From contig CP036163.1 of assembly GCA_019056595.1 (NCBI GenBank), positions 496,001 through 560,000 on the forward strand: 64,000 nucleotides of DNA, read 5' to 3'. The translations under genes and the position numbers were made by a program. Every line of letters begins with the position of its first letter. Within the stretch, counting starts at the first letter, position 1. Below, piece after piece: positions 1-25,150 of the stretch. Under the pieces are notes generated by a model. It was not told the origin of the DNA, did not search any database, and worked only from the letters and a program-made list of their open reading frames with translations. Source of the DNA: Pectobacterium atrosepticum (GTDB lineage: Bacteria; Pseudomonadota; Gammaproteobacteria; Enterobacterales; Enterobacteriaceae).

Positions 1-1702
1 AAGGATTTTCTAACTCTTGGAATAAGGTAGCACCTGAAGCTAACACACAGCTTGCTAAGTTTATAATATGCTCCGATGAGCGGAAAACAGCATTTAAACC
101 ATGCTCATGTGCTAGAGTTGCATCAAGCTCTTTTGCAACATCTTCTTTAGTTATAGTCGTGTCCCCAGAAGCTTGGCTTCGATCCATTGTGAATACAATA
201 TGGTTTGAATTTGGTTTAAGAAGGTTGTGGAATAAACTCAACTCATTAATATTAAAAAGATGAGTTTCATCGATATACATGATATCAAAACCGCCATTTA
301 TTCTTCTGCGCTTCCAAATTGGAGTCGAGGTTTCTTTAAGAGCGGATAGGGTTATATCATCACTATCAAACAAACCTAAAGTGATAAGTTTATCTTGATA
401 TTTATTATAAATTGAGAAGATAGTTTTAAAGTCATCCTCATTTTCTAATGGTATGACATTTTTACTACGAGGAAGAGCGGCGTAAGTTTTAAGATCATCA
501 CCAGCACGCCCTTTAATGTATGTAGAGATCTCCTCTTGAAGCAAAATAGAAATCCCCCATGGATCATTGTTTCCGAAAAAATCTTTAAGTGCGGGGGAAA
601 TAAAGTTGACAGATCCTGCGTAATCATTTATCAAAAAATCTTCAAGAGCTTCGTTTATATATAAGAGCTGTAACTGCTTAGATTCAAAAGCATCGCTATC
701 AAGATACTCTGTTGCTTCTATTCTGTTACCTAAATTTTTGATACACCATTCCTGTAAAGTTGTCACTTCAACAGACTGCTGATGTTCTGAGTCAATAAAT
801 TCAGAGCCACCATTAGATGCTATAAGGTTTTCTATATTAGTCTTAGTTGCTATGCTGTGGGTTATAAAAATAGCTCGTAGCAGATTGTCTGTTTTTTTTG
901 AATTTTGAAGCTGAACTACACATCTCAATATTAAACTTAAAGTTTTTCCTGTTCCTGCTGCCCCTTTAAGAATATCCGGCCCATAGCTTTCGCTATAAAC
1001 AAATCTTTTTTGACTTTCAGTAAGATTTTTTTCCCAATAATCTAACCCCATATGTGGGTTTGATTGAGTATTGGTATTATCAGTTTCATTTATGTTCAGA
1101 TATGTAGTGACATTCTCCTCTTCTATGTCGGGTATTTTAAACAGAGAAAGCGTATCAATATCATGTATCCCTTCTTTAGCTTTGCGGAAATTAGCTAATT
1201 TTGGCACCGCATCGGTAGTGTCATACCCGTCATGAAATATTAAAAAACTACTTTCGTTCCTTTTTTCTTGTCGCTCCTTATCAGGAGATTTATCAAGTAT
1301 GACTTTATAGGATTTTCCAGTAGTAAATGAAAGAGGTAATAAAGCAATTAAAGAAGAACCACTAATTATTTTCTCACATGGACTATGCCCAATCTTATCC
1401 CACAATTTTATCGCCAGCCTGCAAGATTTCTGAATTATCGTGATAATTTCATTACTGTTTTTTTTAAAACCATCAAAGGTCGTTGTGTCGAATATTAACA
1501 TATTCTTTTTATTTGGGTTTTTGCTTAATATATATATACCAGTATTGATAGAGACAGCTTTAACTTCGAGGCTGAAATCAAGTATTTTTCTGTCTTTCAA
1601 TAAATCAGCAAGTATCTGACCTTTATCATAATCTGCTGACTGAAGCATTCTTTCAGAAACGATTTTTCGTGCTGCATTACTTTCAATGGCTATGAAACTC
1701 AT
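1..1702 (-). CDS. superfamily 1 (UvrD/Rep-like) helicase, 3' end beyond window
   Basis: Reading leftward from the ATG at 1702, the frame is open for about 567 codons and runs off the window, so it is a partial gene. The first 240 residues match nothing I recognise. A Walker A motif GAAGTGKT lies near residues 246-253, a Walker B-like MYIDETHLF is encoded near 265-290, and FTMDRSQAS and VFRSSEHI follow, in the order of SF1 helicase motifs Ia-IV. It starts 2 nt after the stop of the upstream gene, so the two are probably translated together. The AT-rich composition and neighbouring integrase remnant point to horizontal acquisition. A nuclease domain could follow off-window. A defence role is inference. 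Confidence 0.75.
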   Translation of the reverse strand, partial: MSFIAIESNAARKIVSERMLQSADYDKGQILADLLKDRKILDFSLEVKAVSINTGIYILSKNPNKKNMLIFDTTTFDGFKKNSNEIITIIQKSCRLAIKLWDKIGHSPCEKIISGSSLIALLPLSFTTGKSYKVILDKSPDKERQEKRNESSFLIFHDGYDTTDAVPKLANFRKAKEGIHDIDTLSLFKIPDIEEENVTTYLNINETDNTNTQSNPHMGLDYWEKNLTESQKRFVYSESYGPDILKGAAGTGKTLSLILRCVVQLQNSKKTDNLLRAIFITHSIATKTNIENLIASNGGSEFIDSEHQQSVEVTTLQEWCIKNLGNRIEATEYLDSDAFESKQLQLLYINEALEDFLINDYAGSVNFISPALKDFFGNNDPWGISILLQEEISTYIKGRAGDDLKTYAALPRSKNVIPLENEDDFKTIFSIYNKYQDKLITLGLFDSDDITLSALKETSTPIWKRRRINGGFDIMYIDETHLFNINELSLFHNLLKPNSNHIVFTMDRSQASGDTTITKEDVAKELDATLAHEHGLNAVFRSSEHIINLASCVLASGATLFQELENP

Positions 1703-1704
1703 AT

Positions 1705-2541
1705 TTATACGCTCATGATATTGGTTAATAATGCCGAGCGGTGATTAGCTACACCTACTCTAACAAAGTTATTTGTGAAACGTTGCATTAATAATTCTAT
1801 AAACGGTGATTTCAATTGACCTACAATACTACAAAATTTATTGGAGATATTTAAATTTAGACCAGGATGTAATTCGCCATTATCAAGCTCTATTCCATTA
1901 GGGATTTTTTTTGCTGTAAGAAGATTAAATTCATAAATTTCTCTTAAGTTCACTAATACTGAATTATAGCCAAGAACGTCATCAATGAAAAAATAGTCGG
2001 GGTTTTTATTTTCAATAATGTCACAAATTATTTTTCTTGCTTCATCATGAAAATAACTTAATAACTGTGAATAAGAAGAGTTTTGCTCTAGGCAATTTAT
2101 TTTTTCTTTTACACTATTTAGGCGGGTTATCTGTTTCTGGTTAAGCAATTTTTTTCAACGATAATATCATAAATCCTATCAAAGCCATAGGTTTCAATAT
2201 TAGCTGATGAAAAACTTGCTGTAGTTAGCAACACTGAATATTGCTGTTCTAAATTTTTAAAAACTTGTTTTTTTATAAGAGGTAACAGCCCTTTCTCTTT
2301 CCAAATTTCAAATTTCAAATTTCAAATTTCAAATTTCAAATTTCAAATTTCAAATTTCAAATGGAATTGCCGGTATGAAATTATAAAAATCAACCTTATC
2401 TTTATTAACTATGTCACATCTTGCGGTTATAACTAAACCTAACGTTTCATTGTTGGGGTACGAAGCGCAATAGGCACAATTGAAAATTGTGCCTTGTGTT
2501 AGATTTTTATCATCCGTAACATCGACCATGTCACGCAGCAT
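1705..2541 (-). pseudogene. partner gene of the helicase, interrupted by a tandem repeat and a frameshift
   Basis: Three reading-frame pieces form one apparent protein of roughly 265 residues. Piece 1 starts at ATG 2541 behind a good Shine-Dalgarno (AGGAG) and reads MLRDMVDVTDD to IPAIPFEI, where the first repeat unit boundary gives TGA. Piece 2 (to 2127) resumes as EIWKEKGLLPLIKK after the repeat. With a single copy of the heptamer, pieces 1 and 2 join in frame. Piece 3 (2148-1705) needs one extra A in the A7 tract at 2149-2155, which would give IVEKKLLNQKQ. I do not recognise the family; piece 1 has a motif VITARCDIV. The gene lies directly upstream of the helicase (2-nt gap). Pieces 2 and 3 could start at in-frame TTG codons (2318 and 2148). 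Confidence 0.55.
2303..2362. repeat. 8.6 copies of the heptamer AAATTTC
   Basis: Eight perfect head-to-tail copies of AAATTTC (2303-2358) and a partial ninth. On the coding (minus) strand the unit reads GAAATTT. Because 7 is not a multiple of 3, the array passes through all three phases, and a TGA occurs once per 21 nt in every frame. Any array of more than one unit therefore stops the upstream reading frame. Copy number is likely to vary by slippage. Confidence 0.95.
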
Positions 2542-2550
2542 TTGATCTCC

Positions 2551-2811
2551 TTATATAGAGTTCTTAGTCACAAAATTTCCCCACCAGTCCATCATCACTG
2601 TTCTGATATCGGGATAGATGGAGCGGTTGTAAGCTCTTCTTACTTCATTTTTATCGGCATGTGCTAAAGAAACTTCAATAGCATCGCTATTGAATTCAGC
2701 CTCATTTAATGCAGTACTGGCAACGATCCTTAGACCATGCGCAACTAACTTACCACCGTAGCCAATTCTTTTTAAAGCGGCATTAGCCGTCTGGCTATTC
2801 ATGTTGGTCTG
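2551..2811 (-). pseudogene. tyrosine integrase, C-terminal remnant
   Basis: The last ~85 residues of a P4-type phage integrase remain. MNSQTANAALKRIGY is followed by the catalytic box HGLR (Arg), then LAHADKNEVRRAYNR, which supplies the His and the Tyr nucleophile, and a WW near the C-terminus. The catalytic N-terminal half and DNA-binding domains are absent. Residues upstream of about 2811 in this frame are only the antisense of the adjoining IS110 fragment. It marks the accessory segment containing the helicase genes as a former integrative element. Confidence 0.8.
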
Positions 2812-2960
2812 GGCTGGGCGGATAAAAAGCACGATGTCTGCGTTCACTTTAAAAACAGTGAGCGCATATTCCAAGTGATTAAACATACGCCGGAAGCGCT
2901 TGATATCTGGCTTACCAAGTTACACCCGAAGGTGAAAGGCAAGATCGCTATTGCCGTTAA
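2812..2960 (+). pseudogene. IS110-family transposase, N-terminal fragment
   Basis: The plus strand encodes GLGWADKKHDVCVHF from about 2812, followed by TPEALDIWLTKLHPKVKGKI and AIAVKLAG near 2950. This is the N-terminal part of a DEDD (IS110-type) transposase, including the first acidic residue in the GxDWADKxH context. There is no start, no catalytic remainder and no IS end. It interrupts the integrase remnant on one side and abuts the IS66 remnant on the other. Confidence 0.6.
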
Positions 2961-3421
2961 GCTGGCAGGTGCCAATAAGGGAGTAAAGCACCGCGGCCCG
3001 CTCACCGCCGCTGTCTGAACTGGCAAACAGCCAGTTTTTACGGCCCTGGGCAACGCCCCGCAGGGCGTTCTCCGAGATGTTGTTATCTATTTCGGCCCAG
3101 CCGTTGCCGCAGTACAGGTTGAGTGCATCCCACTGCTTCAGCAGGTACGAGAACGCCTTCGCTGTATCCGAGCGTCATCTGCACCTGTATCCAGTCGTAC
3201 AGTGACTGCATCAGCTGGATAGTTTTCTCTTTCCGGATCGCCAGTCGTTCATCTGCCGGGCTGCCACGTATTTCCGCCTCGATGGCGTACCGCTCACCGA
3301 TGCGCTTCAGCGCTTCGGTGGTAATGTCGGTCGGGGTACGAACGTGAACGTCGTGGATTTTTCTCCGGGCGTGCGCCATGCAGGCCGCCTCCGTGATGTG
3401 GCCGTCTTCGTACAGCGCGTT
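2953..3421 (-). pseudogene. IS66-family transposase (TnpC), C-terminal fragment with frameshift
   Basis: Minus-strand translation gives [35 protein letters not shown] and YDWIQVQM, then after a frameshift near 3165-3170 [38 protein letters not shown] and YSLIGTCQLNG. These are hallmarks of the IS66 TnpC DDE domain, including the final catalytic Glu in NNISENALRG. Both ends are truncated and no terminal inverted repeat is apparent. It shares GCCGTTAA with the adjoining IS110 fragment at the junction near 2953-2960. Confidence 0.85.
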
Positions 3422-3794
3422 TGCAGGCAAAAGAGGTGAACAGGCTAACCAGTTTGTTATCCATAATCGCAACAGTGCTGGCACCATCAGTCATCAGCAG
3501 CAGATACGGCTTTTTAAGCTGATCTATCCAGATTATATTCAGAGAGCCCGTAACAACTATGACCAGTGGACTGGGAAATATGCTGAGCGTACTCAATGGG
3601 ATAGTTTAAAATCGGCGATTAGCGATCTTCTGGTCGACTTTGTCTACCAGGGATTCACCAAAGGTGAAGTACCGATGAAAGCTGGCATGACAAATGATGT
3701 GGATACACTCATTTATTATATCGAACACAGTACTACTATGATGAGTTATGAAAAAGGACGTAACCGGGTTGGTTACTTGAAGAAAAACCGTTAA
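3422..3794 (+). pseudogene. 3' end of a probable lysozyme/pesticin-like muramidase toxin
   Basis: About 124 in-frame codons end at 3794; the upstream part is replaced by the IS66 remnant at about 3421. The piece reads [49 protein letters not shown] and SYEKGRNRVGYLKKN, resembling the C-terminal half of T4-lysozyme-like pesticin domains found in bacteriocins and type VI effectors. The call rests mainly on that resemblance and on the next gene, an LprI-type lysozyme-inhibitor-like protein 10 nt downstream. It lacks its own start and translocation domain and is probably inactive. Confidence 0.5.
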
Positions 3795-25055: not shown

Positions 25056-25060
25056 TAAAA

Positions 25061-25110
25061 GTGACACGTTCTTTAAAGTGACACGTTCTTTAAAGTGACA
25101 TGTTCTTAAA
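25061..25110 (+). repeat. three 16-17 bp direct repeats between the paralogous binding-protein genes
   Basis: GTGACACGTTCTTTAAA occurs twice (25061-25077, 25078-25094), then GTGACATGTTCTTAAA (25095-25110), followed by a further GTGAC. It lies just after the first binding-protein stop and 40 bp before the second start. Possibly slippage products or a regulatory/processing element. Confidence 0.85.
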
Positions 25111-25150
25111 AGTGACGGCGTCACCATAACAACCTGCAAGGGAAAGACAA

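What the first reader, a model, noticed from the sequence alone, without database searches (positions are those of the whole stretch)
1..2541. Helicase plus unidentified partner gene: candidate two-gene defence module
A superfamily 1 helicase with a long unrecognised N-terminal region is coupled (2-nt gap) to an unfamiliar ~265-residue protein. Both are AT-rich and sit next to an integrase remnant. Helicase-plus-partner operons in such islands are often anti-phage systems. I cannot match this pair to a named system from memory.
Basis: partly seen in the sequence, partly recalled or inferred. Interest (0 to 1): 0.7.

Follow-up and report, generated by a model that had tools for sequence, protein, structure and literature searches.

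The report
Unnamed helicase plus barrel-protein defence pair
Two neighbouring genes, a DNA helicase and a protein of a family without a name, travel together through distant bacteria on phages, phage satellites and plasmids and look like an undescribed anti-phage defence pair, although the second gene is broken in this genome.

Summary
In detail: an intact 756-aa UvrD-like (SF1) helicase lies 2 nt after a partner gene that is broken here but intact in relatives. The partner family is unnamed (no Pfam match at E<=1e-3 in 30 of 30 members). The pair is tightly linked: of 30 genome loci found through the partner alone, 28 have the full helicase directly downstream; the other 2 end at contig ends. 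It occurs in Proteobacteria, Corallococcus, Seleniivibrio and Clostridia. The window copy lies between a Psu remnant (E 4e-24 to P4 Psu) and an integrase remnant, which is the published P4-satellite defence hotspot. A Klebsiella P2-like phage carries the pair in the matching P2 hotspot. Gabija, type IIG restriction, LmuA, AbiU and OLD-like genes flank relatives. It is neither Gabija nor helicase+DUF2290. The partner's confident AlphaFold model resembles MazF best (TM 0.76 over the MazF chain; E-value not significant), with a ~110-residue helical insert and its own invariant ITARCD...K site. Most likely reading: a helicase-controlled MazF/CcdB-fold effector acting against phages. The defence role is likely, the mechanism is inferred, and nothing was tested at the bench. 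Here the module is probably dead.

The parts
2..1702 (-). SF1 (UvrD-like) helicase, residues 1-567 of 756; the rest lies before the window (whole gene L003:1432-3702(-), G000:C2:495432-497702)
   Evidence: motor residues including GxAGTGKT and DExH (D478 E479 H481) invariant in 31 of 31 aligned helicases
1705..2148 (-). partner gene, C-terminal piece (profile positions 114-274)
2127..2318 (-). partner gene, middle piece (profile positions 58-116), in another frame
2302..2362 (.). tandem heptamer array, 8.7 perfect copies, inside the partner gene; absent from 8 of 8 relatives examined and, as three exact copies, found nowhere else in this genome
2350..2541 (-). partner gene, N-terminal piece with the family motifs TQGTIFxCA and GLVITARCD (profile positions 1-61)
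2551..2886 (-). C-terminal remnant of a tyrosine integrase, ending 9 nt before the partner start; 80.2% identical over 81 codons to the integrase that lies 16 nt before the partner in L011

Best explanation
A two-gene anti-phage (or anti-mobile-element) module carried as cargo in the psu-int hotspot of a P4-type satellite. Gene 1 makes a ~260-290-residue protein built on a MazF/CcdB-type beta barrel with a ~110-residue helical insert and its own cluster of invariant polar residues; I take it to be the effector, acting on nucleic acid or on a nucleic-acid enzyme. Gene 2 makes a UvrD-like SF1 helicase with a conserved ~220-residue N-terminal domain; I take it to be the sensor and motor that recognises phage DNA intermediates and releases or feeds the effector. 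SHOWN here: conserved gene pair and order, near-universal linkage, purifying selection, hotspot position, defence neighbours, barrel fold (predicted). INFERRED: anti-phage activity, effector and sensor roles, target. In this genome the effector gene is broken, so the module is probably inactive here. Separate odds: defence module 0.8; effector is the barrel protein 0.5; inactive in this strain 0.85.
For: Linkage: 28 of 30 loci, gap -4 to +15 nt with the start codons chosen by my script, a 4-nt overlap in 15 of 28. Hotspot: psu remnant L003:863-1210 (E 4e-24 to Psu 3rx6) on one side, integrase remnant on the other; Klebsiella P2-like phage with the pair between the portal gene and the replication gene; both positions are the published P4 and P2 hotspots (PMC9122126, passages). 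Neighbours: GajA+GajB in L051, AbiU-like in L025, OLD-like in L044, type IIG enzyme about 320 nt upstream in L023, LmuA directly downstream in L028, ubiquitin-like/E1 genes in L020; 110 near genes gave 138 PADLOC families at 1e-10, 105 control genes of the same genomes gave 6. Fold: pLDDT 89.9, pTM 0.81; top Foldseek match MazF-mt3, TM 0.76 over the MazF chain, probability 0.87; 13 of the first 14 rows and 28 of the 50 rows shown are MazF-type. Invariants in 30 of 30: Q16 G17 G35 I38 T39 A40 R41 C42 D43 K49 W64 S229 P230 E233 Q237 R245 G247.
Against: No bench test. No Foldseek match at E<=0.001 (best 0.75); profile-profile comparison with 7 PemK/MazF proteins is not significant (probability 0.2%); by the short strand match the positions where MazF has its catalytic Arg and Thr (recalled) carry no conserved Arg or Thr here, so RNase activity cannot be assumed. 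Of the 138 PADLOC families, up to 69 and 42 come from the two Gabija proteins of one locus, so the neighbour contrast is weaker than 138 to 6 suggests; five of ten large neighbours looked at singly matched nothing. Some relatives sit beside ordinary genes, for example L016 and L018. The helicase was never folded.
Confidence: 0.5

Rival explanations
1. Defence module, but the helicase (motor plus N-terminal domain) is the effector, degrading or remodelling phage DNA, and the barrel protein is an adaptor, loader or inhibitor without enzyme activity.
For: SH3-like barrels often bind rather than cut (general knowledge); canonical MazF catalytic positions are not conserved; the helicase N-terminal domain has its own invariant residues Q21 G55 D72 Q91 R95 W101 E110 P123 P140 R148 L154 in 31 of 31.
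Against: The N-terminal domain matches no nuclease family, and the densest cluster of invariant polar residues (ITARCD...K) is in the barrel protein.
Confidence: 0.28
2. Not defence: a DNA-repair, replication or transfer helper of mobile elements.
For: All 121 E. coli places are on plasmids, none on chromosomes; 84 of 92 plasmid records with the helicase are typed conjugative; DNA-repair genes flank L017 and L018.
Against: It sits at two dedicated defence hotspots of unrelated elements and in chromosomes beside Gabija, type IIG and LmuA genes; most E. coli plasmids in the collection lack it.
Confidence: 0.12
3. A toxin-antitoxin-like addiction pair in which the helicase keeps a MazF-fold toxin in check.
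For: MazF-like fold; plasmid residence; coupled genes.
Against: Here and in L008, L009 and L021 the partner is broken while the helicase is intact, which fits, but the helicase is also broken with the partner kept on other plasmids (H110/L064: helicase hit by an IS with partner annotated whole), which a strict toxin with this antitoxin would not allow.
Confidence: 0.07
4. The heptamer array is an on/off switch that makes the partner phase-variable in this strain.
For: Perfect 8.7-copy array inside a coding region.
Against: The unit contains TGA and 7 is not a multiple of 3, so arrays of three or more copies have a stop in every frame; 8 of 8 relatives have no array; a second frame break lies downstream.
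Confidence: 0.03

Closest known systems
Helicase + DUF2290 system (Rousset et al. 2022, PMC9122126, passages read)
   Same: Two genes, helicase plus small partner of unknown function, in P4-type hotspots; reported there to stop T7
   Different: Partner not related: profile comparison probability 0.3%, no DUF2290 match in Pfam scans; gene order opposite (helicase first in L052-L054; partner first here)
Gabija (GajA + GajB)
   Same: Two genes with a UvrD-like helicase second; helicase matches GajB models weakly (E 1.1e-12, part of the model)
   Different: First gene is not an OLD/AAA nuclease (no Gabija match); about 130 more helicase residues, including an N-terminal domain of ~220
MazF/PemK toxins (and CcdB, same fold, recalled)
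   Same: Predicted barrel fold; best structural matches
   Different: ~110-residue helical insert, no sequence similarity, no conserved Arg/Thr at the MazF positions, paired with a helicase instead of MazE
AbiO, NERD+UvrD (C3a187), RTasHel in PADLOC
   Same: UvrD-type motor, weak partial matches
   Different: Different N-terminal domains and no such partner
AbpAB (listing only; details recalled)
   Same: Upstream protein plus downstream helicase
   Different: Recalled as unrelated protein families; not compared here

Membership tests
Gabija | GajA-type ATPase-TOPRIM nuclease beside the helicase | tested here: not met
   Partner matches no PADLOC model at E<=10; partner model is a barrel
Gabija | GajB-type UvrD helicase | tested here: not met
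   Only partial, weak GajB matches, best E 1.1e-12, against 8e-250 for the true GajB of L051
Helicase + DUF2290 | DUF2290 partner (PF10053) | tested here: not met
   No PF10053 match (own genome none); hhalign probability 0.3%
P4-hotspot cargo | Position between psu and int | tested here: met
   psu remnant L003:863-1210, pair, int remnant window 2551-2886
P2-hotspot cargo | Position between gene Q (portal) and gene A | tested here: met
   NC_049450, as annotated; hotspot definition in PMC9122126
MazF/PemK | Barrel fold | tested here: inconclusive
   TM 0.76 over MazF, probability 0.87, but E 0.75
MazF/PemK | Catalytic Arg and Thr (recalled) | tested here: not met
   No conserved Arg at 30-34 or Thr at 57-61; register rests on a 6-residue, non-significant match
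MazF/PemK | RNA cleavage | not testable with these tools
   needs an assay
Anti-phage defence system | Protects against phage | not testable with these tools
   needs an assay
SF1 (UvrD-like) helicase | Walker A, Walker B and UvrD N/C domains | tested here: met
   motif II is DExH (D478 E479 H481), where UvrD has DExQ (recalled)

The most novel reading that the evidence does not exclude
A new class of immune module: a superfamily-1 helicase coupled to a MazF/CcdB-fold effector with a large helical insert and a new catalytic site (ITARCD...K plus E233/Q237/R245), spread by P2 phages, P4 satellites and conjugative plasmids, and found in at least four phyla as named in the records.
Probability: 0.4. 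Interest if true: 0.8.

Novelty: new variant of a known kind. Interest (0 to 1): 0.6.

Why it matters
It turns two 'hypothetical/UvrD-domain' annotations, found on plasmids of 120 of 5,426 complete E. coli genomes and in distant bacteria, into one testable immune module. If right, it adds a MazF/CcdB-type barrel to the effectors known to be driven by UvrD-like helicases and gives a sequence signature (TQGTIFxCA - GLVITARCD - LRE - SPxIEHLMQ - RIG) with which the module can be added to defence databases.

Tried and rejected
Tried without result: family scans of the partner pieces and of intact relatives in Pfam, NCBIfam, PADLOC and PHROGs; sequence search of solved structures with the partner profile (best E 0.18, unrelated); genome-contig scan with the helicase alone (none); search of 198 genomes of the family with the helicase and 25 of the genus (own genome only) and of 369 genomes of the class with the partner (own only), so the pair is sparse. 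Literature: searches found no description of the pair; this covers open-licence PMC only. The supplementary tables of PMC9122126, which list the systems of the P4 and P2 hotspots, could not be read (no supplement look-ups), so the pair may be listed there unnamed.

Rejected: housekeeping UvrD/Rep (NCBIfam scores 17-20 against cut-offs of 951-1144); Gabija; helicase+DUF2290; heptamer phase switch (see rivals). A first thought that the partner alone is selectively lost was dropped: both genes are broken in some plasmid copies, and no rates were computed.

Weak points: gaps and starts depend on the start codons chosen by script; the neighbour genes were called by a longest-ORF script, and 110 of 162 listed near genes were scanned; the control took 105 genes of 13 stretches from 13 of the 28 genomes. 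PADLOC output counts families, not genes. 'P4-like' for L011 rests on its integrase and on its primase-like ORF read by eye (recalled); psu was not tested there.

Full report
WHAT IS THERE. The window begins inside a helicase gene on the minus strand. In the genome the gene is intact: 756 aa, L003:1432-3702(-), that is G000:C2:495432-497702. Residues 228-504 match UvrD-helicase and 674-725 UvrD_C above the Pfam cut-offs; nothing matches the first ~220 residues. Two nt upstream of it ends the partner gene, which in the window is split over three ORFs that match consecutive parts of one family profile. The breaks are a perfect 8.7-copy heptamer array at 2302-2362 and a second frame break near 2127-2148. 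The array is absent from 8 of 8 relatives examined, contains a stop in every frame when three or more copies are present, and three exact copies occur nowhere else in the genome. It is therefore a lesion, not a reading-frame counter. Whether the lesions are real or errors of sequencing cannot be told without reads.

THE SITE. Before the helicase's end lies a 115-aa ORF, L003:863-1210(+), that matches the polarity suppression protein Psu of satellite P4 (E 4e-24, residues 87-187 of 190). After the partner's start, 9 nt away, lies the C-terminal end of a tyrosine integrase (window 2551-2886). So the pair sits between psu and int. Rousset et al. (PMC9122126; passages read) describe the stretch between psu and int of P4-like satellites as a hotspot of antiviral systems, and the stretch between genes Q and A of P2-like phages as a second one. 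A viral contig, L011, has the same order integrase - partner - helicase with 16 nt between integrase and partner and an integrase 80.2% identical over 81 codons to the remnant. The Klebsiella P2-like phage ST16-OXA48phi5.4 carries the intact pair between the portal gene and the replication gene. A further, 5'-shortened integrase follows ychF at L002:17634-18683, so the island in this genome is a decayed composite.

HOW WIDELY THE PAIR OCCURS. tblastn finds helicase relatives on 92 plasmid records and partner relatives on 88 (E limits 1e-5 and 1e-2); I did not compare the two lists record by record. In complete E. coli genomes DNA of the pair is found in 120 of 5,426 genomes, 121 places, all on plasmids; 109 genomes have at least 80% of the query. 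Divergent pairs (partner 24-29% identical) lie on plasmids of Azoarcus, Paraburkholderia, Leisingera and Rhizobium. A scan of genome contigs with the partner alignment alone returned 30 loci. In 28 of them a full-length helicase, including the N-terminal domain, follows directly; in 15 of 28 the genes overlap by 4 nt with the start codons I chose. The two others, L026 and L049, end within 50 nt of the partner's end. Titles name Proteobacteria, Corallococcus, Seleniivibrio and two Clostridia. By contrast whole-genome samples near the window found only the window's own copy (1 of 198, 1 of 25 and 1 of 369): the module is sparse and mobile.

SELECTION. Between the window, phage, satellite and plasmid helicases pS is 0.78-0.87 and pN 0.11-0.16; intact partners show pS 0.81-0.86 and pN 0.23-0.25. 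Synonymous sites are saturated, so no dN/dS ratio is given; amino-acid change is clearly held back. The window's partner pieces are as similar to the intact relatives (47-86% identity by piece) as the intact ones are to each other (60-62%), so the lesions look recent.

NEIGHBOURS. In L051 a complete Gabija (GajA E 3e-270, GajB E 8e-250) follows about 1.4 kb downstream; L025 has an AbiU-like gene and L044 an OLD-like ATPase next to the pair. L023 has a type IIG restriction-modification enzyme about 320 nt upstream; L028 has LmuA directly downstream. On the Agrobacterium plasmid, multiubiquitin, ThiF and DUF6527 genes precede a distant pair. Over 110 near genes (of 162 listed) PADLOC gave 138 families at 1e-10; 105 control genes from 13 stretches of the same genomes gave 6. 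The contrast is inflated by redundant models: the GajA and GajB of L051 alone match 69 and 42. Five of the ten large neighbours scanned singly matched nothing (L034, L030, L048, L037, L022 and L045 among them make six).

THE PARTNER. No Pfam family matches any of 30 members at E<=1e-3 (best 0.0054); NCBIfam likewise has nothing better than 0.0024, PADLOC nothing at E<=10 for the two intact proteins scanned. Seventeen residues other than the start Met are invariant in 30 of 30, most of them polar: Q16 G17 G35 I38 T39 A40 R41 C42 D43 K49 W64 S229 P230 E233 Q237 R245 G247. AlphaFold2 on 30 sequences gives mean pLDDT 89.9 and pTM 0.81: strands at 18-21, 34-37, 52-60, 167-170, 179-182, 187-190 and 223-227 and a C-terminal helix, with a long helical insert (99-114 residues) between the third and fourth strand. 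Before searching I suspected a MazF/PemK barrel from the strand pattern. Foldseek against the PDB agrees: MazF-mt3 is first (TM 0.76 over the MazF chain, 0.34 over the model, probability 0.87), 13 of the first 14 rows and 28 of the 50 rows shown are MazF-type, but no match reaches E<=0.001 (best 0.75). A profile comparison with seven PemK-family proteins is not significant, and the MazF catalytic Arg and Thr (recalled) have no conserved counterpart in that register. So: MazF/CcdB-like fold probable, MazF chemistry not shown.

THE HELICASE. The motor residues are invariant in 31 of 31, among them GxAGTGKT and a motif II of DExH. The N-terminal domain is conserved through the family (eleven residues invariant in 31 of 31). 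Its structure could not be predicted because the machine stayed busy.

MECHANISM. Shown: fixed pair, order and coupling; hotspot residence; constraint; fold of the partner by prediction. Inferred: the helicase recognises DNA structures made during phage replication and, through its motor, releases or activates the barrel effector. This is how the Gabija helicase-nuclease pair is broadly pictured, with another effector; the parallel is general knowledge, not a test. In this strain the broken partner leaves an intact helicase gene that may have no function.

COMPARISON AND NOVELTY. Not Gabija (no GajA; GajB match partial and weak), not helicase+DUF2290 (probability 0.3%; opposite gene order), not MazEF. 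I found no description of the pair, of which I saw listings, plus passages of PMC9122126 and PMC9519451. The supplementary system lists of PMC9122126 were not readable, so the pair may be listed there without a name.

Noticed in passing
L006, L007, L008, L009, L021, L061-L067, just upstream of the partner start: In the plasmid copies a poly-G tract lies directly before the partner's GTG start; its length was G6 (1), G7 (3), G8 (2) or G9 (6) in 12 of 12 sampled copies, a pattern seen in slippage-prone expression control. The phage, satellite and window copies have an ordinary AAGGAG site instead.
   Followed up: partly
E. coli collection: The pair is on plasmids in all 121 E. coli places and on no chromosome in 5,426 genomes, although the relatives sit in P2 and P4 elements of other enterobacteria.
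   Followed up: no
L002:17634-18683(+): A 349-aa tyrosine integrase lacking the start of its arm-binding domain follows ychF, 0.2 kb away; with the integrase remnant at window 2551-2886 this makes two integrase relics on either side of the pair.
   Followed up: partly
window 2890-3500: Fragments that look like an IS66-type transposase follow the integrase remnant (label recalled from the translations, not searched).
   Followed up: no
L008, L009, L021, L064, L065: Several plasmid copies have a broken partner (L008, L009, L021, L065) or a broken or interrupted helicase (L064, L065) (tracts); homopolymer runs are the weak spots in at least one.
   Followed up: partly
L020:1-5470: On an Agrobacterium plasmid a distant version of the pair stands beside multiubiquitin, ThiF-type E1 and DUF6527 genes, perhaps a joint island.
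   Followed up: no
window 25058-25116: A 17-bp tandem repeat, 3.5 copies, AAAGTGACACGTTCTTT.
   Followed up: no
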